Part shown: piece by piece, positions 71 to 41,229 of the stretch
Position numbering within the stretch: position 1 is the stretch's first letter
Layout: every line of letters starts with the position of its first letter
Source: Planctomycetia bacterium
GTDB taxonomy: Bacteria; Planctomycetota; Planctomycetia; Pirellulales; UBA1268
DNA: 59,203 nt
Direction: 5' to 3'
Assembly (NCBI GenBank): GCA_014192425.1
Contig: BJHK01000024.1
Span: forward strand, 1-59,203
Position numbers and translations under genes: made by a program
The notes under the pieces: generated by a model
What the model saw: only the letters and a program-made list of their open reading frames with translations
Databases searched by the model: none
What the model was told of the DNA's origin: nothing

Positions 71-3000
71 GCACCGACTATAGCGAGGTAAAGCGTATAA
101 GTCAAGTATTTGACGCCCGGAGTAGTAACAACAGGAACCTGGCCCTGTACACCGACGCCATGCGCGACGTCTGCCGGGAGAAAGAGGTCGTGTTCGTCGA
201 CCTGTTCGCGGCGACGCAGCGGCTCTACGCCACGGCGGCGAAGCCGCTGACGATGAACGGCGTCCACCTGCTCGACGAGGGCGATCGGGCCTTGGCCGAC
301 GTGGTCATGCAGAACCTGTTTCCGGGGGCACGCTCGGCCCCCGAGCCGGCCCTGGAGCGGCTCCGGCAGGCGGTGCTCGACAAGAACGACCACTGGTTCA
401 GCCGCTACCGGGTGATCGACGGTTACAACGTGTTCGGCGGCCGCTCCAAGCTCGCCTGGTTCGGGCAGTCGAACGCCGACGTGATGATGCGCGAGATGGA
501 GATCCTCGACGTCATGACGGCCAACCGCGACGCCCGGATCTGGGCCGTCGCCACGGGGGGCGACCTCGTCGTCAGGGACGACAACCTGCCCCCCCAGGTC
601 GAGGTGAAGACCAACAGTCCCGGAAAGCTCGAGGGGGGCAGGCACGTCTATCTCGGGGGCAAGGAGGCGATCGAGAGGATGAAGGTCGCCGACGGGATGC
701 AGGTCAACCTGTTCGCGTCGGAGGAGATGTTTCCCGAGGTGGCCAACCCGGTGCAGATGGCGATCGATCCCGACGGCGTGCTGTTCGTCGCCATGTGGCC
801 GTCCTACCCGCACTGGAATCCGACCGAGCCGCGGCTCGACAAGATCGTCAGCCTGCCCGACGACGACGGCGACGGCGTGGCGGACCGCTGCGTGACGTTC
901 GCCGACGGCCTCGACAGCGTCACGGGCTTCGAGTTCTGGGGGGGCGGGATGCTGGTGGCGGCGCTCCCGGAGATCTGGTTCCTCAAGGACACCGACGGCG
1001 ACGGCAGGGCCGACTTCAGGCTCCGCATGCTGCAGGGGCTCGACAGTGCCGACTCCCACCACTCGGCCAACGCGATGCTCATCGGCCCCGACGGCTGGCT
1101 GTACTGGTCGCGGGGGGTGTTCAACGTGTCGGCGATGGAGACGCCGACGCGGACCGTGCGGTCCGACCGGACCGGCGTGCACCGCTTCAACCCGCGGACG
1201 TTCGAGGTCGAGTTCCACTTCCCCATCGGCCCCAATCCCCACGGCGACGTCTTCGACCAGTGGGGCTACCAGTTCGCAAACGACGGCACGACCGGCGTCG
1301 GTTCGTACGTCAACATCGGCAAGGGGGTGGGGAACAAGCCGTGGTTCGAGAAGCGCGTGCGGCCGGTGGCCGCGACCGGCCTCCTGGCGAGCAGCCATTT
1401 CCCGGAGAAGAACCAGGGGAACTTCCTGGTCTGCAACACGATCGGCGTCCTCGGCGTGCTCCAGCATGAGGTGAAGTACAACGGCGCCGAGATCACGGCC
1501 AAGGAGATCGAGCCGCTCCTCGTGTCGAGCGATCCCAATTTCCGTCCCTCCGACCTGGAAATCGGCGCCGACGGCGCCCTGTACGTCGCCGACTGGGCCA
1601 ACGCGATCATCGGCCACATGCAGCACAACATGCGCGACCCCAATCGCGACCATACCCACGGCCGGATCTACCGCGTGACCGCCACGGACCGGCCGCTGGT
1701 CAAGCCGGTGCGGCTCAAGGGAAAGCCGATTGCCGACGTTCTCCAGCAGGCGTTCTTCGCCAAGGAGAACGCCACCCGCTACCGGGGCCGGCTCGAACTC
1801 TCGGGCCGCCCGACGCCGGAGGTGGTGGCAGCGGTGCGGGCGTGGACGAAACCGCTCGATCCAGCCAACCCCGAGCATGCCCAGGCGCTGCTCGAATGCC
1901 TGTGGGTGTTCGAGGAGCATCGGACCCCCGACGGGGCGCTGCTCGACCGGGTGTACGCGGCCGCGGAGCCCCGCGTGCGGGCCGCCGCGATCCGCACGCT
2001 GGGGCACTGGGGGGAGAAGATCGCCGGCTGGAAGCCGCTGTTGCTTTCGGCGGCGACCGATGCGTCGCCGCTCGTGCGGGCCGAGGCTGTCAAGGCGGCC
2101 GCGGCGATCGGCCCGACCGCCGCCGAGGCGGTGTTCGAGGCGTCCGACCGGCCGACCGATCGCGAACTCGAGACGGTGCTCGGCTACGCGCAGGGCAAGG
2201 TGCAGGCGTTCGCCGTTCTGCGCAATGCCGTGACGGCGAAACAGCCGCTCTCGGCTGCGGGAATGCGGTACATGCTGCGGCACGCGCCGGTCGACGACCT
2301 ACTCACGCTGGAGCGGACCGAGGCCGTTTGCGACGCCATCGTCGACCGGCCGGGGGTGCCGATCGAGGCGGTGCGGCAGGCCGTGACCAGCCTCGCCGGG
2401 ATGCGCACGGCCGGGACGGTGCCGGTGCTGCTCGACCTGATCCGCCGACGCGACGCGGCGAACGGCGCCAGGGCCATCGCCGGCCTCGGCCGGCTGCTCG
2501 CCGAGCAACCGGCCGAGCAGCTGAAGGCCGAGCGGTCGGCGATCGAGACCCTCGCCACGAAGGGGGCGACCGGCCCGGCCCGGCAGGCCGCGTATGCCGC
2601 CTGGATCGGCGCCGACGGTTCCGGCGATGGGGCGTTCCTGGCCGCCTCGCGGGCCACGGAGAGTCTGCGCGACGTGTTGGCCGCGGTGCCGGGGGTGGCG
2701 GACGAGACACTGCGCGGCAGCCTGTACGCGGCTGTCCGGCCGCTGCTGTTCAGCCTGCCCCCGGGGCTCGAGCCTGAGCCGGTGGGCGGCACCGGCCGGC
2801 CCGCGGCAACGGGCGTCTCGGTCCACGAACTGGCGATCCGGACGCTCTCCGCGATCCGCGGGCACGAGGCGGAGAAGTTCGCCGACCTGACGGCGATCGT
2901 GAAGGCCGACCGGCATCGGGCCGCGGCGATCGCCGAGTTGGGAAGGCTTCCGGACACGGCCTGGGCGGCGAGGGAAATTCCGGAACTTGCCGACAATCTG

Positions 3001-4116
3001 GTCGGCTACCTGAGCGGACTGCCTGCGGCGGCCCGCACAGCGCCGGCCGCGGCCGAGGCCACAAAACTCGTCAGGGTCCTCGCCGGCCGGCTGCCGGCAG
3101 ACAGGGCCTCGACGATCACCAACCGGCTGCAGAACCTCGACGTTCGCGTGATCGCGATCGGGACCGTCTACGAGCGGATGATCTTCGACAAGGAGACGCT
3201 CGTCGTCGAGGCGGGGAAGCCGGTCGAGTTCAGGTTTTCGAACGGCGACGCCATGCCGCACAACCTCGTGATCCTCCGGCCGGGAGCGCTCGAGGAGGTC
3301 GGCCTGCTCGCCGAGGCGACCGCCCGCGATGCCGACGCCAAGGAGCGGCACTACGTCCCGAAGAGCGACACCGTGCTGCTCGCCAGCCGCCTCCTCGATT
3401 CCGGGCAGTCGCAGGTGCTCTCCTTCGAGGCGCCCAAGGAACCGGGGGTCTATCCCTATGTCTGCACCTATCCGGGGCATTGGAGGCGAATGGTTGGCGC
3501 GCTGTACGTGGTTTCCGATCTCGCCGCATACGAGAAGAATCCGCAGGCCTTCCTCGCCGCCACGCCCCTGCCAGTGAAGGACGAGATGCTCGCGGTGCTG
3601 GGCAGGAACACCGACTGGAAATACGACGATCTCGCCGCCGCAATGAAGCCGCTGCCGCCGGGCCGGTCGTTCGAGGTCGGCAGGCGGGTCTTCGCCGCGG
3701 CCAACTGCGTCGGCTGCCACAAGGTTGGCGGGGCGGGGAACGAGATCGGCCCCGACCTGACGAGGCTCGAACCGGCGCGCGGCACGCCCGAGGCGCTGCT
3801 GAGATCCCTCTGTGAGCCGTCGCACGAGATCGCCGACACGTACCGGTCGCACACGTTCGCGCTCGACTCGGGCCGGCTCGTCACCGGCATGATCGTGGCG
3901 GAGACGCCGACCGCGATCACGGTCATGGAGGATCCGCTCGCGCGCTGCGAACCGACGCTGATCGAGAAGGACACGATCGAGGATCGCAAGGCGTCGCCCG
4001 TGTCGATCATGCCCAAGGGCCTGCTCAACCGGCTTTCGCGCGAGGAGATCCTCGACCTCGTCGCCTACCTCGTCGCCAACGGCGACGCCCGCAATCCGAT
4101 CTACGCCCCGCGCTGA
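64..4116 (+). CDS. PVC-type CxxCH heme protein with azurin-like domain, 5' end lost to an insertion sequence
   Basis: The 1350-residue frame starts inside the insertion-sequence end (GTG at 64). Homology-like sequence begins near NRNLALYTDAM, so the true N-terminus is missing. Order of domains: the tail of an SGNH-hydrolase-like region (to about residue 105), a beta-propeller of the planctomycete 'membrane-bound dehydrogenase' type (about 195-550), helical HEAT-like repeats (about 560-1010), an azurin/plastocyanin-like domain (about 1025-1150) with candidate copper ligands in MPHNLV and CTYPGHWRRM, and a C-terminal cytochrome c domain with CVGCH near residue 1215. Such proteins are exported redox enzymes, probably acting on sugars or other small molecules. 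The substrate is unknown. Without its promoter and export signal the gene is probably inactive unless transcribed from the element. Confidence 0.85.
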   Translation: MPCTDYSEVKRISQVFDARSSNNRNLALYTDAMRDVCREKEVVFVDLFAATQRLYATAAKPLTMNGVHLLDEGDRALADVVMQNLFPGARSAPEPALERLRQAVLDKNDHWFSRYRVIDGYNVFGGRSKLAWFGQSNADVMMREMEILDVMTANRDARIWAVATGGDLVVRDDNLPPQVEVKTNSPGKLEGGRHVYLGGKEAIERMKVADGMQVNLFASEEMFPEVANPVQMAIDPDGVLFVAMWPSYPHWNPTEPRLDKIVSLPDDDGDGVADRCVTFADGLDSVTGFEFWGGGMLVAALPEIWFLKDTDGDGRADFRLRMLQGLDSADSHHSANAMLIGPDGWLYWSRGVFNVSAMETPTRTVRSDRTGVHRFNPRTFEVEFHFPIGPNPHGDVFDQWGYQFANDGTTGVGSYVNIGKGVGNKPWFEKRVRPVAATGLLASSHFPEKNQGNFLVCNTIGVLGVLQHEVKYNGAEITAKEIEPLLVSSDPNFRPSDLEIGADGALYVADWANAIIGHMQHNMRDPNRDHTHGRIYRVTATDRPLVKPVRLKGKPIADVLQQAFFAKENATRYRGRLELSGRPTPEVVAAVRAWTKPLDPANPEHAQALLECLWVFEEHRTPDGALLDRVYAAAEPRVRAAAIRTLGHWGEKIAGWKPLLLSAATDASPLVRAEAVKAAAAIGPTAAEAVFEASDRPTDRELETVLGYAQGKVQAFAVLRNAVTAKQPLSAAGMRYMLRHAPVDDLLTLERTEAVCDAIVDRPGVPIEAVRQAVTSLAGMRTAGTVPVLLDLIRRRDAANGARAIAGLGRLLAEQPAEQLKAERSAIETLATKGATGPARQAAYAAWIGADGSGDGAFLAASRATESLRDVLAAVPGVADETLRGSLYAAVRPLLFSLPPGLEPEPVGGTGRPAATGVSVHELAIRTLSAIRGHEAEKFADLTAIVKADRHRAAAIAELGRLPDTAWAAREIPELADNLVGYLSGLPAAARTAPAAAEATKLVRVLAGRLPADRASTITNRLQNLDVRVIAIGTVYERMIFDKETLVVEAGKPVEFRFSNGDAMPHNLVILRPGALEEVGLLAEATARDADAKERHYVPKSDTVLLASRLLDSGQSQVLSFEAPKEPGVYPYVCTYPGHWRRMVGALYVVSDLAAYEKNPQAFLAATPLPVKDEMLAVLGRNTDWKYDDLAAAMKPLPPGRSFEVGRRVFAAANCVGCHKVGGAGNEIGPDLTRLEPARGTPEALLRSLCEPSHEIADTYRSHTFALDSGRLVTGMIVAETPTAITVMEDPLARCEPTLIEKDTIEDRKASPVSIMPKGLLNRLSREEILDLVAYLVANGDARNPIYAPR

Positions 4117-34581: not shown

Positions 34582-34945
34582 CGGCGGAACTTTCGAGACC
34601 GGCGTTCAATGCCGGAGGAACGATCGCACTCGAGTCCGCGTTCACCGCGTCAGCCCCTGGGCGACGTGCAAACTCGGTTCCGCCTCCGTGACATCGTACC
34701 GCTGCCGTCCGTGCCGGCCAATGGGGACGGGCGGATGCCTCGGCCAGTGGCAGTTCGGCAAGCGTCGGCCGCGCGGAGCGGATCACGAGGAGCACTACCC
34801 GGGCTGGCCTGGCTCGATGGGGGCTCTGGTTGCTGCACGCCCGGCTCCAGTGGCTCCCGCGGCGGGGTATCGACGATTGTGCCTGTCCTTTTGGGCTCCC
34901 GACAAGGGTGGTTCTGGTGTGCGCACACGAACCAACATACGATGG
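34582..34945. other. Gene-free gap upstream of the ATP-grasp operon
   Basis: No convincing reading frame. It must hold the promoter of the operon to the left, but no clear -35/-10 could be read. A dispersed repeat core TGCCTGTCCTTTTGGG lies at 34880-34895. Confidence 0.5.
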
Positions 34946-35857
34946 TCAAGATCTGGCATACCGTGACACGTCGACAGTTTCCCCGGGCGACTCGAGCCCC
35001 AACTTCAGAAGTGGAAGCGGAAGGTGCGGGTTGCGGTCACCGATCCAGCCCTCCACGACGGCCAACGTGAGGAATTGGCGGTACAGGGCGAGATTCACCA
35101 TCGCCAGTGCCGGGAGACACAGTTGCGTAACCGCGATGTCGACCGGAAAGGGTTGTTCCGCACACACGCGTCCTTGCCACGCCAACAGCCGCCCCAGGCT
35201 CTCAGCGAACAGGCCTACGTCGCCGGTCGTCATGCCGCGAACCATATCTGCCTGAAAAAGGTATTTCTCTTCGCCATCGTTCGTGGGCACAACGTCCGCA
35301 AGATGTGCCAAGGCTCTCTCTGGGTGGTTTTCCACCAGATCCCGGATGGAATACGCCAACGGGCGGCCGACCACAGGCTCCTGAATGTCAGTGAAGAAAT
35401 CCTGTTTCAGCGGAAGATCTCGAGCAAAACCCGCGAGCCGTCTCGCGATGCCGAACTCGGCCGCACCGAGGGAAAGATGAAACCCGTCTAAACAGTATGT
35501 CGCGCATTTGTAAGTGCGCAATCTCTCCAGCAGCTCCTCTTCTTGAACCGTCGCAGGCTTGGGCTCGCGCTCAAACACCTGTAATTCTGCGAAAGCGGCT
35601 CTCGCCAGCGCATCGCGCACGTCTTCCGCCCGACCGTGATTCGCATGGATGACACAAGCGGCTTCGCGGTAACAACGCGAAAGGCTCCCGTATTTGCTCG
35701 CGCATTCCGTTAACCAGATCAGTACGGAAAGAGAGGAGCCGGGAAATTTAGGCGATGCCGAGTGCAGCGACTCCAGCGTCTTTTCGGCTTCACCCAGCTC
35801 GTTCGAAACAAACCTCGCCAGAAACTCCTTCAACTCATCCGCAGAGATAGTGCTCAC
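34946..35857 (-). CDS. Putative immunity protein, Imm49-like
   Basis: A 303-residue soluble, mostly helical protein with no signal peptide. The second half (RGMTTGDVGLFAESLGRLLA followed by a helix with LPALAMVNLALY and PHLPLPLLKLG) resembles the ends of Imm49-type immunity proteins, but the match is by pattern only. Its lower GC and its place behind a CPCC gene and a HINT toxin support an immunity role and recent acquisition. Other possibility: an unrelated cargo gene. It starts 36 bp after the CPCC gene ends. Confidence 0.5.
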   Translation of the reverse strand: MSTISADELKEFLARFVSNELGEAEKTLESLHSASPKFPGSSLSVLIWLTECASKYGSLSRCYREAACVIHANHGRAEDVRDALARAAFAELQVFEREPKPATVQEEELLERLRTYKCATYCLDGFHLSLGAAEFGIARRLAGFARDLPLKQDFFTDIQEPVVGRPLAYSIRDLVENHPERALAHLADVVPTNDGEEKYLFQADMVRGMTTGDVGLFAESLGRLLAWQGRVCAEQPFPVDIAVTQLCLPALAMVNLALYRQFLTLAVVEGWIGDRNPHLPLPLLKLGLESPGETVDVSRYARS

Positions 35858-35893
35858 AGTCTTCTCCTGATGAAGCCTCGCCGTGCTGAGGCC

Positions 35894-36493
35894 CTACCGA
35901 TTCGGACCACGAGATGGAAGCGGCTTCCAGTGCGGTTCCCTCTCATCGCTCGGTGCCGGTTCGGTCCGCAGGTGTGCGACATCCGGCGAGTACGCCCCGC
36001 ACCGCAGATAGTTTTGCTGACATTCGCGCAGCGACAGTCCCCGGTTTGTCTTCGGCGAACGCCAGTCCGCTTGTTTTCCAAACTGACAGTCAAAATAATA
36101 CCGACAAATACGGCACTCGGCGCCAGTAGAAAAGTGAGTAAGGTAGCCGCAACATGGGCAAGCCATTAAAACGCGTAAATCCTTCCTCCGCCAAGCCTTG
36201 CCATCCTCAACTGGATCGGGCACGGCGGGAAAGGGACGCCACTCAGGATCGCGCTCGAACTTCGACAGTCGTGGGCCGCGATAGATCTCAGGTCGTCCAT
36301 CACAATTGCCCCATTTCATGAAATTGTGCTGCGCATCGCGCAGAGTACATCCATTTGGGCCGGGCCGGAAATCGGGCTCGCTCTCCTGCGCATAGTCGCA
36401 TTGCCAGTGGCAGATGCGGCAACCATCATATTCGCCGCCAATCGTTCTGTACCCACAGCATGCACAGACTTCCGCATCTCTCTCATGGTTCAT
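35894..36493 (-). CDS. Double CPCC-domain cysteine-rich protein, putative immunity protein
   Basis: The 199-residue protein holds two copies of the cysteine-rich CPCC domain. Copy one has CACCGYRTI, CRICHWQCDY and the NGCTLRDAQHNFMKWG run; copy two has CPCCGYLTHF, CRICRYYFD and LSLRECQQNYLRCGAY. Each copy has two CxxC pairs that probably bind zinc. Single-domain relatives are often encoded next to polymorphic toxins and are thought to be immunity proteins. Start ATG 36493 (MNHERDAEV). It lies about 180 bp downstream of the open remainder of the toxin. Confidence 0.7.
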   Translation of the reverse strand: MNHERDAEVCACCGYRTIGGEYDGCRICHWQCDYAQESEPDFRPGPNGCTLRDAQHNFMKWGNCDGRPEIYRGPRLSKFERDPEWRPFPAVPDPVEDGKAWRRKDLRVLMACPCCGYLTHFSTGAECRICRYYFDCQFGKQADWRSPKTNRGLSLRECQQNYLRCGAYSPDVAHLRTEPAPSDEREPHWKPLPSRGPNR

Positions 36494-36669
36494 TTTCGCA
36501 GGTTATCCAATGAGCCTCATTGCTTCCGCCACCACCGCCGCATCGTAAAGAAACCGTCACTGTGCCACAAACCCTGCCTCCGTTCATTCGCCCATGCCGT
36601 CGTGCGCCGCGGCATGCCATCGGGGTGTGCCAAACTGTTTGCCGGTATTCATATGGCTGATCCAACCAC

Positions 36670-36999
36670 TTATTTTTTCTTAGCCCAGAAGACCAGCCAT
36701 TCGGCCCGAGTATTTCCCTCTGCCTTAAAAAAGGTCCTCAACGCGCCTGTATTTGGGCCCTGAATTACACGCGTCGTGAAATGGCCGTTGGTGAGATCCA
36801 GGATCAACTCGCTCTCGATTTCTATTCCATCTTCGAAGCGCGTTTGGTACTTCCGCAGAATTGTGGCGGGTAATTGGTCATCAAGTTTGCCGTCGCACTG
36901 CGTTGCGTGTCGGTGACCCTCTCTGATGTAGCTGAAGAGATCGTCAACACCATCGGGCTTGCTATTGTCGACGTTCAGTATGACGTGCTTGTCAAAGTG
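36670..36999 (-). pseudogene. Read-through remainder of the HINT toxin after a nonsense codon
   Basis: Directly after the TAA at 37002-37000 the same frame stays open for 109 codons, starting HFDKHVILNVDNSKPDG, through DLFSYIREGHRHATQ and ESELILDLTNGHFTTRV to WLVFWAKKK, and ends at TAA 36672-36670. It has no start codon or ribosome site of its own. The coding style matches the toxin tip before the stop, so the stop is most simply a single-base change (for example AAA or CAA to TAA) in one continuous toxin domain. Confidence 0.75.
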
Positions 37000-39900
37000 T
37001 TACCCGATGTTCTGTGCCGCCGTATCGAATCTCCCTTTCGTCCAAAGGGTGGCGGGAAGTTTCCGATCGGCTTTCGCTGCGTACTTGCCCAATGAGCCGA
37101 GCACTTCGTACAGTTCTTCTTCGGTGTGCCATTCGCGGCCTTTGTCGCCATAGACCATGGCGGTCGTTTTCTTTACTGCGTCAGTTATGGAGTCGCCGTC
37201 GATCTTCAGGGATTTCCAGTACTCTCCCTTGACGAAATCACAGTATCCGCCTGTGTTATGCACCCACACGCCATGCGGGCCGACGAAGTAGGTGTGGTAG
37301 TCCTGAACCGCGAAGTTGTACGTTGTGAAGGTTGACCCGACCGCGGCATCATCGCGGGCCAGCATGGCGACTACGGCCGTCGTTCCGTCTGCCAACGCGA
37401 GCGCATCGCCCGGTTGGAGTTCGGCCGCCGGAACAAACTCATTGCGATCAACGACGTAGAACGGGTGCTCGGCAGTGCAAACCAACAGCTCACTGGCGCC
37501 TGCGGGAGCACCCGGCAGGCAATACCACACGGAATAGAGGGCTGCCGGATGCGTGACAAAGGTCTCGAGCACAGGCTTGTAGCCCTGGTCGCCGGTGACC
37601 GGATCGCGGGACAGCACCCGATCGCCGGGCGTGACGTACTCGATAGCGATCAGCCCACGGTCGGTGACAACCGTCGTACCGGCCACGAAGCACATCTTGT
37701 TCGTGGCATCGGCGAGTAGGTCCACATATTCGAGGAACTTGCCGCCCGTTTGAAACACCTTGGCGATCACCGGGGAGGCATTGTCGCTGAACTTTCCGGC
37801 CTTCAAGGCGGCCTGAACCTTCTCAATCGCTCCCAGCTTGGCGAGTTTCGCCGTCCCTGCGGTGACAACAGCCTCTGCGACCTCATACAGGATTTGACCG
37901 ATCACCTCCCCCTTCTGATAGGGCGTGAGGTTGGCCATATGTTCGGCGAGTTCAAGCATGAGTTCGAGGGACACCTCGATCACGCTGGCGGCGACCTCGC
38001 CGAGCGCGTTCAGTTCCTCCAAGTCGCCCCGTGCAATTGCCTCGATCGTTTCTCTCTGGAACTCCATCACCTTCTGTGCAATACGGGCCATCGCCGTCAC
38101 CGTATCGGTGGCAATGCCGACGGCTTGAATGACGGCTTGCCGTTCGGCTTGGAACGTATCGCCCGTCTGCAGGCGGACCTGAATCGCGACGGGGTTGTAT
38201 TTCACTCCAGCTGTGACGCCGAACTTGAGAATGCCCCAAAGCCCTTCAACGGAGCCCCAGAGCCCGTGCCGGAAGAAGCCATCGACAACTCCGCCCAGGA
38301 AGAGCGGCGCATCGACCGGCTTGATGATCGCCGCTGCTCCGACTTTCTGGATGCGCGTGCTCAAAACGGCAGGGTGCAAGACGCTTCCCTCGCCGTCGTC
38401 CTTCATCGCTATGAACGCGTTTCCGGCGAGGTCGCGGGCGATTCCGCGCGGGCCGTCGTCTGTCTCGATGCTTTGGACAAAGTCTTCCATTTCGAGCGGG
38501 CCGAGCAGTTGGATCATGTACCGGTGCGCTTCGCCGGCGCCGGACTGGGCGAGTGTCACCGTCTCGCCGATCGCAAAACTGTAGCCCGAGAAATCCACGG
38601 CCTCGTAATCATCGACCGTTCGCTGTCGCGACGCGTTGAACGCCAACGAATCGTTGGACGACTCCGCCACCAGGAAGTCGAGCGCACTGATGTCGAGTGA
38701 CCTGCTGGTCACCACTGCCTCGACCGTATCGGGCAGCGCTGGGTCAAATACGTGATTCGGATCGATGACGATCACGAGGTCATCGGTATCGCCTCGAAAC
38801 GTCATGGAGGCATTGGCGGTTTCCGTCAAGACCGCCGACGCCGAGCCGTTGCCGCGCGTGATGATGGCGGTGATCGCGTCAGGCGCTCCCGGCGATGGCG
38901 CGGCGACGAACCCGAGCTGCACGGAAAGCTGCTCCGTGTAGGGGTAAGGCGATTGTGCCTGTACCTCAACCGCCGCCTCTGCGCTTCCGGTGTACCCAAA
39001 CACCCGGTCGGCGGCGACTACGGTCACACGGTTGTAGCCGGCTCCCAGAGCAACGTTGACGAACGCGTGTGAAAATGTGCCGGAGTAATCGTACGGCTTC
39101 AAGTACGAGTCGAACCGCTGCGACTTTGAAACGTTTGTCGTCACAGTGCCAAGGGGATCAACGGAGTCGCCAAGATAAACGGTGACTTCTTCGATCTTCC
39201 CCAGATCGCCAGGCGTGGAATCGCAAATGGCGGAGTCGACCGTGCCGGCGACTTGAACCGTGCCGAGGAGCGTGGTGTTGTCGGAACTGAGGTGCAGATT
39301 GCTCAGTGAAAGCGACGTGATCGACACGACGGGGCCGTCGTGCGAGACCGAGACGGTCGTTGTTGGTGTCAGGTAATTGTTCTCGTCGACGCTCACGAGG
39401 CGCCAATCGATCACGGTCGCCCTCACCGCGTCGGAAAGCGCCACGCTGCCTGTTCCACCGCCGCCGCCGAGGCGAAAGTCGACACCGATGCTTTGGTCGG
39501 CCACGTGACCACTTGCCCGCACGGCCTCCACATAAAGTTGCCACTCGTTCGGCCCAATGCGGGCCGCCTCGGGCAGGGAGGCGACCGTGTACGCCTTGCC
39601 GGAAGCGATGTAGTCTCCGCCCGCGTCGATCTCGGACTTACGACGGCTGGCTGGCCCATCTTTGCCCCAGAGTCGAAGGTGGCCTGCCGCAGGCTCGTAG
39701 CGATATCCATCTTCCGCCGTACCTGTCCGCACCACGGCTCTGGGGTCGGAAGCGTCGTAGCTGAAGACGAACTCCGCGTCTGGAATGTCGAGCGTGGAGG
39801 GAAGCCTGAGGATCACCGGTGCAAAGCCGGCACTGGCGCCGCTTCCTTGCTGACCGAAGATGTCATACCCGTCAGCGAAGTCCGGCACACGATCGCCATC

Positions 39901-41073
39901 GACATCGCCGGACGCAGCAAGAAGCACGCGGCCAGGCAGCCGCGTGTCATCGGTGCGCTCCTCAATAGGGTCATCGTCTTCACTGATCTTCCCGTCGTTG
40001 TTCGAGTCCACGTCCAGATCCACCGCCACCGCCGTGGCGCGTATCGTGTCGCGCGGTTGCGAAGTCGTGCTGCCACTGCCCGTGCCGACGTTGGGCGTCA
40101 GCGTGAAGGCGATGTCAGCCATGCTCGCACTCGGCGCGAAGGCTTCGATCCAGTAGGTCTGCACGGCACCGCCGGCGATCGTGGTGCCCGCTGCGGGAAT
40201 CGCCGTGCCGCCCGTCTGCGCCGTCCAGAGTCGGACCTTGTCCGCCCCTTGGGTGATGGCCAGCGTGGCCGACCGGCCCTGTGGCACGTCCACGATCATC
40301 TCCGCGCGGCTGCCCCCCACGGGCACGATCACGCCGGGCAGGTCGGTCTTCTCCTCGATCGGGTCGTCGTCTTCGGCGATCCTGCCGTCGTTGTTACTGT
40401 CGACGTCGAGATCGACTCCCCGCGGTTCCCAGACCACCTGGTCCTGCCTGGTGGGATGTTGCAGGACGTAGAGCGAGACGGCGGGGCCGCCGGCGCTGGG
40501 CGCGGGCGTGCCAGTACCGTTCAGCCACGACTCGGCGCGGGCGACGGCCGGAGACGCGGAAGCGCCGACTTGGAAGCTGCCGCTCTTCAGATTGCGCGAC
40601 GGGCCGTCGCTGATCAGCTCCCAGATTCCGAGCTGAAAGGCGGCGGCGTCGGTGACGCTGGTAAAGCCGGTGGTCTTGGGACCGTAACTCCGCCAGAAAT
40701 CGGCAACCAGGCCCGCATTGGCCAGGCCGCTGCTCGCGAGTGGCGCCCGCGTCGGAAACGTGTGCAGGCCGGGCGAGATCGACTGCCCGATTTCGACGCA
40801 GAACGAATTGAATCCCGACCAGGCGAACTGCCCCACGAAACTGGTGGGTACATTCGCGGGCCGCAATGGATGGATCACGGGAATGCGGTCAAACATCGAA
40901 ATGTTGTTCTCGAGCCTGGCCGTGGTGGAGAGCATGCAGCGGGATTCGAGCGGCTCGGCAGCCAGCTGAATGCGGCGGGAGGCAGAGGTCCGGCGGCGGA
41001 AGGAGTTGCCTGTGCGGGAGCGACGGAGCGAACGAGCACGGGTGAATACCGAACCGAAGCCGCGAGGCGACAT
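37000..41073 (-). CDS. Secreted polymorphic toxin with HINT domain, truncated by a nonsense codon
   Basis: The start ATG 41073 (MSPRGFGSVF) follows AGGAA; longer frames lack a site. The basic N-terminus leads into LEPLESRCMLS (near residue 45), the planctomycete N-terminal export-type motif. Then come adhesin-like beta repeats and at least two Asp/Asn-rich calcium-type motifs (DLDVDSNNDGRIAEDDD and DLDVDSNNDGKISEDDD). A HINT autocleavage domain spans about residues 1128-1272 (CFVAGTTVVTDRGLIAIEYV, CTAEHPFYV, ending VWVHN). The tip after it is 85 residues, then TAA. The HINT domain would release the tip. The tip appears incomplete: see the open remainder at 36670-36999. Putative immunity genes follow. 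If the stop is real, this allele should be non-toxic. Confidence 0.85.
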   Translation of the reverse strand: MSPRGFGSVFTRARSLRRSRTGNSFRRRTSASRRIQLAAEPLESRCMLSTTARLENNISMFDRIPVIHPLRPANVPTSFVGQFAWSGFNSFCVEIGQSISPGLHTFPTRAPLASSGLANAGLVADFWRSYGPKTTGFTSVTDAAAFQLGIWELISDGPSRNLKSGSFQVGASASPAVARAESWLNGTGTPAPSAGGPAVSLYVLQHPTRQDQVVWEPRGVDLDVDSNNDGRIAEDDDPIEEKTDLPGVIVPVGGSRAEMIVDVPQGRSATLAITQGADKVRLWTAQTGGTAIPAAGTTIAGGAVQTYWIEAFAPSASMADIAFTLTPNVGTGSGSTTSQPRDTIRATAVAVDLDVDSNNDGKISEDDDPIEERTDDTRLPGRVLLAASGDVDGDRVPDFADGYDIFGQQGSGASAGFAPVILRLPSTLDIPDAEFVFSYDASDPRAVVRTGTAEDGYRYEPAAGHLRLWGKDGPASRRKSEIDAGGDYIASGKAYTVASLPEAARIGPNEWQLYVEAVRASGHVADQSIGVDFRLGGGGGTGSVALSDAVRATVIDWRLVSVDENNYLTPTTTVSVSHDGPVVSITSLSLSNLHLSSDNTTLLGTVQVAGTVDSAICDSTPGDLGKIEEVTVYLGDSVDPLGTVTTNVSKSQRFDSYLKPYDYSGTFSHAFVNVALGAGYNRVTVVAADRVFGYTGSAEAAVEVQAQSPYPYTEQLSVQLGFVAAPSPGAPDAITAIITRGNGSASAVLTETANASMTFRGDTDDLVIVIDPNHVFDPALPDTVEAVVTSRSLDISALDFLVAESSNDSLAFNASRQRTVDDYEAVDFSGYSFAIGETVTLAQSGAGEAHRYMIQLLGPLEMEDFVQSIETDDGPRGIARDLAGNAFIAMKDDGEGSVLHPAVLSTRIQKVGAAAIIKPVDAPLFLGGVVDGFFRHGLWGSVEGLWGILKFGVTAGVKYNPVAIQVRLQTGDTFQAERQAVIQAVGIATDTVTAMARIAQKVMEFQRETIEAIARGDLEELNALGEVAASVIEVSLELMLELAEHMANLTPYQKGEVIGQILYEVAEAVVTAGTAKLAKLGAIEKVQAALKAGKFSDNASPVIAKVFQTGGKFLEYVDLLADATNKMCFVAGTTVVTDRGLIAIEYVTPGDRVLSRDPVTGDQGYKPVLETFVTHPAALYSVWYCLPGAPAGASELLVCTAEHPFYVVDRNEFVPAAELQPGDALALADGTTAVVAMLARDDAAVGSTFTTYNFAVQDYHTYFVGPHGVWVHNTGGYCDFVKGEYWKSLKIDGDSITDAVKKTTAMVYGDKGREWHTEEELYEVLGSLGKYAAKADRKLPATLWTKGRFDTAAQNIG

Positions 41074-41229
41074 GGTGGGGTTCCTGATGCGGGAGGGAGG
41101 TGCAGGGGCGGGGCCGCGGGCGGGCGGGGAGGAGCGTACGCTAACAAGGGGGGGGGGCGTCAAGGGGCCGCGCGATGAGAAGTTGATGAGCAGCGGACGT
41201 GCACGGGTCACGCGGCGTGCCGGGCGGGC

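What the first reader, a model, noticed from the sequence alone, without database searches (positions are those of the whole stretch)
36670..37002. In-frame nonsense codon splits the toxin tip of a HINT polymorphic toxin
The C-terminal reading frame of the secreted HINT protein stops at TAA 37002-37000, but the identical frame is open for another 109 codons up to TAA 36672-36670 and reads as a credible continuation (HFDKHVILNV... to WLVFWAKKK). One base change would restore a toxin tip of about 195 residues after the HINT domain. This suggests recent disarming, phase-variable or suppressed translation, or possibly read-through.
Basis: partly seen in the sequence, partly recalled or inferred. 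Interest (0 to 1): 0.7.

Follow-up and report, generated by a model that had tools for sequence, protein, structure and literature searches.

The report
Nonsense-broken toxin tip with intact immunity
A planctomycete's bacteria-against-bacteria toxin gene carries a stop codon just before its RNA-cutting end domain while the neighbouring immunity gene is intact, so the weapon is probably disarmed, an ordinary kind of gene loss in such systems.

Summary
An intact tip from a related planctomycete (G056) aligns across both halves with one TAA inside; 6 of 6 relatives covering the stop column have a sense codon there. The open frame alone is weak evidence: 10 of 34 window ORFs, this one included, have 109 or more open codons after their stop. 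The 109 residues after the stop fold alone (pLDDT 85.5) like PDB 8EY4 chain A, a contact-dependent inhibition toxin, and less closely like colicin D. 8EY4's immunity chain is a CPCC protein; an intact CPCC gene follows here too (35894-36493). The stop directly precedes the conserved H-x-x-K-H, so the product lacks nearly the whole toxin domain. No further stop or frameshift follows, no tRNA for UAA was found among 46 tRNA matches, and no other copy of the tip was found in the assembly. Best reading: a recent nonsense mutation disarming a known kind of toxin. Main rival: a consensus error; reads were not available.

The parts
37000..41211 (-). large polymorphic-toxin ORF, 1403 aa as terminated by the TAA
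   Evidence: 469 of 1102 alignment columns identical to an intact relative in G056
37255..37671 (-). PT-HINT domain (PF07591), complete, ending in VHN
   Evidence: E 4.2e-25, profile 2-136 of 137; E 8.1e-24
37003..37254 (-). pre-stop part of the tip: 84 residues between HINT and the stop, including the start of the toxin domain's first helix
   Evidence: 27/81 identical to the G056 tip, E 2e-9; alignments
37000..37002 (-). in-frame TAA, directly before the conserved H-x-x-K-H
36673..36999 (-). post-stop part: nearly the whole colicin-D-like (BECR-type) ribonuclease domain, 109 residues
   Evidence: 34/105 identical to the G056 tip; own model pLDDT 85.5; 8EY4 chain A Z 9.5, colicin D Z 5.6-5.9
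36670..36672 (-). second TAA, end of the toxin domain; G056 and most relatives end close to the equivalent place
35894..36493 (-). intact cognate-type immunity gene, 199 aa, two Cys_rich_CPCC (PF14206) stretches
   Evidence: E 3.8e-25, 2 stretches; 37/84 identical to the CPCC protein next to the G056 tip; matches 8EY4 chain I, E 1.9e-7
34946..35857 (-). 303-aa ORF next in line, no family match; possibly another immunity-type protein (inference only)
   Evidence: no Pfam or NCBIfam match

Best explanation
The locus encodes a planctomycete HINT polymorphic toxin whose C-terminal tip is a colicin-D-like ribonuclease of the 8EY4 (contact-dependent inhibition) kind, paired with a CPCC immunity protein. 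A nonsense codon at 37002-37000 ends translation inside the first helix of the ribonuclease domain, directly before its conserved H-x-x-K-H. The product that is made has backbone, HINT and an 84-residue remnant, but no ribonuclease, and is therefore most likely harmless. The immunity gene is intact and could still protect against kin or rivals armed with the same tip. The domain after the stop shows no further stop or frameshift and keeps its conserved histidines, so the change looks recent. Shown by calls: the split, homology, predicted fold, partner gene, no other copy of the tip found in the assembly. Inferred: HINT processing, RNA cleavage, harmlessness, recency, the use of the retained immunity.
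For: An intact relative's tip aligns across both halves with one TAA inside. 6 of 6 relatives covering the stop column have a sense codon there, and the column is variable. The post-stop piece alone folds at pLDDT 85.5 and aligns to 8EY4 chain A at Z 9.5, rmsd 2.3, 82 residues, and to three colicin D entries at Z 5.6-5.9. An intact relative gives 8EY4 Z 15.6 and four colicin D entries Z 7.8-9.2. A profile of three tips finds 8EY4 chain A at E 2.6e-10. 8EY4 chain I is a CPCC protein. The next gene passes the Pfam CPCC cut-off in 5 of the 6 loci that carry the tip or a remnant of it, in G056 and here. Of 10 post-stop columns invariant in the six intact relatives the window keeps 7, including both H and the K, and two of the three changes are conservative (V to I, R to K). 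No suppressor-type anticodon. Only one match to the tip in the own assembly. A decayed remnant of the same tip beside an intact CPCC gene exists in another genome (L017), so loss of toxin with immunity kept has happened elsewhere.
Against: No reads, so a wrong base call cannot be excluded. No allele from the same species or genus is at hand to show the unbroken state: 0 of the other 21 genus genomes held (several of them incomplete) has the backbone piece searched. Foldseek on the post-stop model gave no match at E 0.001 or better and did not list 8EY4 among its best 50; the 8EY4 match comes from the second-look aligner and from sequence profiles. By sequence alone the post-stop piece found no relevant chain. 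The lack of further stops or frameshifts would also fit an error or a stop that is read through. Ribonuclease activity was not tested.
Confidence: 0.77

Rival explanations
1. The stop is a consensus or assembly error (or a minority-strain base) in a draft assembly, and the toxin is intact in the organism.
For: The rest of the domain has no further stop or frameshift and folds well. The assembly is in 70 contigs. The N-terminal half of this same gene holds blocks that are 97-99% identical to the ends of three other contigs (C7, C38, C2), so repeats may have troubled the assembler within this gene.
Against: Those three blocks lie at 40083-40962, over 3 kb from the stop, and no paralogous match comes nearer than 39959. 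Only one match to the tip was found in the assembly, so no known paralogue could have been mixed in there. 34 ORFs of 150 aa or more cover most of the window, which argues against a generally poor consensus.
Confidence: 0.17
2. The stop is read through at low frequency (near-cognate misreading or an unknown signal), giving a small amount of full-length toxin as a dosage control.
For: Downstream domain without further stops. Immunity kept intact.
Against: No tRNA gene with an anticodon for UAA, UAG or UGA among 46 tRNA matches. The RNA around the stop is not unusually structured (z -1.49, 10 of 200 shuffles at least as stable). No relative has a stop there (0 of 6), so there is no conserved programmed site.
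Confidence: 0.04
3. Two separate genes: the HINT protein truly ends at 37000 and the downstream 109 codons are an independent small toxin gene.
For: Small free-standing toxins with related folds exist (RelE/HigB-like entries appear).
Against: The post-stop translation has no M, and its first listed start (TTG, 36807) would give 45 aa without the H-x-x-K-H. In G056 and the five other intact relatives the two sides of the stop column lie in one frame. The pre-stop 84 residues are homologous to the part joined to the toxin in G056.
Confidence: 0.02

Closest known systems
Contact-dependent inhibition toxin / CPCC immunity complex of E. coli O32:H37 (PDB 8EY4; 8EY3 is a CPCC protein)
   Same: Same toxin family by profile (E 2.6e-10) and predicted fold (Z 9.5 broken piece, 15.6 intact relative); same kind of immunity protein
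   Different: 8EY4 comes from a CDI system (entry title; its chain A is named a PT-VENN protein), here the carrier is a planctomycete HINT protein; the window's immunity protein has two CPCC stretches; the window's toxin is cut by a stop
Colicin D ribonuclease domain (PDB 1V74, 1TFO, 1TFK, 5ZNM)
   Same: Helix-helix-four strands-helix arrangement in the models; intact relative Z 7.8-9.2 for the four entries; window piece Z 5.6-5.9 for three of them
   Different: No match to a colicin D family in Pfam; different immunity protein (recalled); identity 11-18%
HINT polymorphic toxins, planctomycetes included (survey PMC3482391; passages seen)
   Same: PT-HINT domain just before a variable tip, immunity gene downstream
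   Different: Tip truncated by a nonsense codon
G056:C193 HINT protein, another family of the same order
   Same: Backbone 43% identical over 1102 alignment columns, same tip, CPCC gene next
   Different: Tip intact; one CPCC stretch; gap from tip to CPCC gene 15 bases against 176 in the window

Membership tests
HINT polymorphic toxin (PF07591 carriers) | PT-HINT domain above the curated cut-off | tested here: met
   84.9 bits against 27.7
HINT polymorphic toxin (PF07591 carriers) | shared backbone with exchangeable C-terminal ends | tested here: met
   five other places in the same genome share blocks of the N-terminal half (86-99% identical); four of them (C34, C7, C1, C2) go on differently, judged by eye, and C38 runs off its contig in the block
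HINT polymorphic toxin (PF07591 carriers) | immunity gene next to the tip | tested here: met
   double CPCC gene 35894-36493
HINT polymorphic toxin (PF07591 carriers) | intact toxin domain in frame with HINT | tested here: not met
   TAA at 37002-37000
8EY4-type (colicin-D-like, CPCC-paired) toxin domain | sequence match to 8EY4 chain A | tested here: met
   E 2.6e-10 with a 3-row profile that includes the window tip, stop as X; E 2.7e-24 with an intact relative, next hits at E 0.095 or worse; the post-stop piece alone found nothing relevant by phmmer
8EY4-type (colicin-D-like, CPCC-paired) toxin domain | predicted fold | tested here: met
   Z 9.5, rmsd 2.3, 82 residues for the post-stop piece; Foldseek alone listed no match at E 0.001
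8EY4-type (colicin-D-like, CPCC-paired) toxin domain | conserved H-x-x-K-H present | tested here: met
   invariant in the window and six relatives
8EY4-type (colicin-D-like, CPCC-paired) toxin domain | CPCC partner | tested here: met
   5 of 6 neighbours
8EY4-type (colicin-D-like, CPCC-paired) toxin domain | RNA cleavage | not testable with these tools
   needs an assay
Colicin D family proper | Pfam-level sequence match | tested here: inconclusive
   no colicin D family listed; structural likeness only

The most novel reading that the evidence does not exclude
The UAA is kept on purpose: occasional read-through lets a few full-length toxin molecules be made while most copies are harmless, with immunity made in full. 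Nothing here supports it directly, but a domain without further damage behind a stop is what it predicts.
Probability: 0.03. Interest if true: 0.7.

Novelty: new member of a known kind. Interest (0 to 1): 0.22.

Why it matters
It documents a CPCC-paired, colicin-D-like toxin tip on planctomycete HINT proteins and seems to catch its loss at an early stage, with the immunity gene still whole. A later stage of the same loss is visible in an unrelated genome (L017). This fits the idea, recalled and not looked up, that orphan immunity genes arise by loss of the toxin first. As a single allele without reads or relatives of the same species it does not open a new question.

Tried and rejected
Chance open frame: the open stretch alone is not special (10 of 34 ORFs, this one included), but homology settles it. 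Independent downstream gene: rejected. Suppressor tRNA: none in 46 tRNA matches of an assembly rated 95.88% complete. Phase variation: one match to the tip in the own assembly, no direct repeats and one imperfect inverted pair 1162 bases apart in 34800-37400 (that tool leaves out runs of units of one to three bases, so short homopolymers were judged by eye only).

Close alleles: the post-stop piece was sought in 60 genomes, the own one included (2 of 60, own and G056), and in 392 genomes drawn from the phylum (1 of 392, the own one); the backbone piece in 22 genus genomes (1 of 22, the own one); the G056 tip in 396 genomes drawn from the order (3 of 396, own, G056 and G616). No match for the G056 tip in plasmids or viral contigs. 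First genome-contig scan, with the post-stop piece: no relative. Second scan, with the G616 tip: 7 loci, of which L018 is a 14-residue match judged to be chance and L017 a remnant; both were left out of the alignments. The G616 tip matched 45 plasmid records (the same search with two listings); none was fetched.

Pfam and NCBIfam name no family for the tip (weak chance-level Pfam rows at E 0.02 and 0.11 were set aside). Foldseek on the post-stop model: nothing at E 0.001. In the alignment with five relatives the window keeps only 7 of 18 columns invariant in those five, against 10 of 18 in intact G056. Literature: '8EY4' is in no held paper; no paper on a CPCC immunity protein with such a toxin was recognised in the listings (broken toxins and orphan immunity; planctomycete HINT toxins) were seen as listings only. 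The survey PMC3482391 was seen in passages; it lists several predicted BECR tips with planctomycetes among their hosts, and I could not match ours to one by name. PMC9086364 was seen in one passage. All other papers: search listing with abstract starts. That the 303-aa ORF 34946-35857 might be Imm49-like was a thought from memory; Pfam did not support it.

Full report
What is there. The window is contig C24 of a 70-contig assembly of 3.98 Mb rated 95.88% complete. It is a planctomycete by inference: the genome G616, which the tool places in the same order, has a contig of the same length as, and 100% identical at the tip to, a record titled 'Planctomycetota bacterium' (L012). The ORF holds a complete PT-HINT domain (one search places it at 37255-37671), followed by 84 residues to the stop.

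Is the open frame meaningful by itself? Hardly. Of 34 non-overlapping ORFs of 150 aa or more in the window, 10 (this one included) have at least 109 open codons after their stop. Mononucleotide shuffles of this stretch are stop-free in 92 of 20000 cases, but the window is GC rich (67%) and such stretches are common in it.

Homology settles it. Searching the post-stop piece in 60 genomes, the own one included, found one other, G056, from another family of the same order. There the matching part lies inside an uninterrupted frame of 1253 codons. The G056 protein (1195 aa) is identical to the window's protein up to the stop in 469 of 1102 alignment columns, has a PT-HINT domain and the same tip. 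Used as a query, the G056 tip aligned to the window over its residues 5-179 with '1 TAA' inside (37%, E 2.2e-22), and found a third planctomycete, G616. With the G616 tip as query, a scan of genome contigs gave 7 loci: G616's own record (L012), four intact relatives (Akkermansiaceae, Sumerlaeaceae, Cnuella, Thermoactinomyces), a remnant in Oxalobacteraceae (L017) and one chance match (L018). In the six intact relatives that cover the stop column (G056, L012 to L016) the frame runs through it, with several different residues in that column.

What the tip is. The G616 tip matches PDB 8EY4 chain A at E 2.7e-24, with nothing else better than E 0.095. A profile of three tips including the window's (stop as X) matches it at E 2.6e-10 and no other chain up to E 1. 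The post-stop piece by itself found no relevant chain by sequence. Aligned with five relatives, the post-stop 109 residues give a confident model (mean pLDDT 85.5, pTM 0.78; two helices, four strands, one helix). In the second-look structural comparison the model aligns to 8EY4 chain A ('Contact-dependent growth inhibition toxin-immunity protein complex from E. coli O32:H37') at Z 9.5 over 82 residues and to three colicin D entries at Z 5.6-5.9. Foldseek's own list had nothing at E 0.001 or better and did not show 8EY4 in its best 50. The intact L012 tip gives 8EY4 Z 15.6 and four colicin D entries Z 7.8-9.2, followed by other contact-dependent inhibition toxins and RelE/HigB-type toxins. This is the arrangement called BECR (Barnase-EndoU-ColicinE5/D-RelE), listed for many polymorphic-toxin tips in PMC3482391 (passages). 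From memory, colicin D's catalytic histidine is residue 611; one search places model residue 1 at residue 607, so the second H of H-x-x-K-H may be its counterpart, which is an inference.

The partner. The next gene, 35894-36493, is intact and has two Cys_rich_CPCC stretches. Chain I of 8EY4 is named a Cys_rich_CPCC protein and matches the G616 neighbour (E 1.5e-15) and the window's protein (E 1.9e-7). The gene directly after the tip passes the Pfam CPCC cut-off in 5 of 6 genome-contig loci, the exception being L015, and in G056. In three of these loci the two genes overlap by four bases; in the window they are 176 bases apart. The window and G056 CPCC proteins share 37 of 84 aligned residues. 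So the tip and the CPCC gene are a conserved toxin-immunity pair, and the window has the pair with only the toxin broken.

Where the stop falls and what it does. It lies in the first helix of the domain, directly before the conserved H-x-x-K-H, in a variable column. The terminated product therefore keeps backbone, HINT and an 84-residue remnant but no ribonuclease. Of 10 post-stop columns invariant in six intact relatives the window keeps 7, both H and the K among them; the other three are V to I, R to K and one G to E next to an insertion. Of 18 columns invariant in the five genome contigs relatives the window keeps 7 and the intact G056 tip 10, so much of the difference belongs to this branch of the family rather than to decay, although a little decay cannot be told apart from it. 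No further stop or frameshift follows. The break is thus recent, or not real, or tolerated.

Rivals. An error of the consensus cannot be excluded without reads. Repeats may have troubled the assembler in this gene: blocks at 40083-40223, 40277-40548 and 40737-40962 are 97-99% identical to the ends of contigs C2, C7 and C38. But these lie over 3 kb from the stop, and only one match to the tip was found in the assembly. Suppression: the 46 tRNA matches gave no gene with an anticodon for UAA, UAG or UGA. Local RNA structure is unremarkable (z -1.49). Phase variation has no visible machinery. A separate downstream gene lacks a usable start.

Context. Five other places of the same genome share blocks of the N-terminal half; four go on differently by eye and one runs off its contig. 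A second double-CPCC gene lies on C38 (122 of 208 aligned residues identical); neither a PT-HINT match nor a match to the tip was found on C38. None of the 36 genus and family relatives searched has a CPCC match. A decayed remnant of the same tip, about its last 28 residues with a stop inside, stands directly before an intact CPCC gene in the Oxalobacteraceae contig. Loss of the toxin with the immunity gene kept has therefore happened elsewhere in this family.

Verdict. The finding is real and correctly placed; its best explanation is ordinary: a known kind of interbacterial toxin tip, met here on planctomycete HINT proteins, disarmed by a nonsense codon while its immunity gene stands. Whether the base is right in the organism needs the reads.

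Noticed in passing
L017 (DHXL01000413.1, Oxalobacteraceae MAG) about 2998-3284: Remnant of the same toxin tip (about its last 28 residues, with a stop inside) directly before an intact CPCC gene: a later stage of toxin loss with immunity kept.
   Followed up: partly
L070 (G056:C186:12001-12189): A CPCC gene in the related genome G056 has a TAG inside its frame: a broken immunity-type gene, with no toxin recognised by eye beside it in the stretch read.
   Followed up: no
window 40083-41190 against G000 contigs C2 end, C7 end, C38 start, C34, C1: Blocks of the N-terminal half are shared with other large genes of the same genome (97-99% for C2, C7 and C38; 86-90% for the main C34 and C1 blocks); three contigs end in them, so recombination or repeat-collapse acts here.
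   Followed up: partly
G000:C38:2180-2812 (L081): Second double-CPCC protein, 59% identical to the window's immunity protein, with no PT-HINT or tip match on its contig.
   Followed up: partly
L003 and L002 (G000:C2:276682-281299): Another HINT gene with its own different tip and a possible immunity gene, followed by a partial second HINT end that closely repeats the first: looks like a displaced spare tip cassette (by eye).
   Followed up: no
L072 (G037:C4:163410-164180): Three CPCC matches in one 321-codon frame, without a toxin recognised by eye upstream in the stretch read.
   Followed up: no
window 34946-35857 (-): 303-aa ORF after the CPCC gene with no family match; by position a candidate second immunity protein.
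   Followed up: partly
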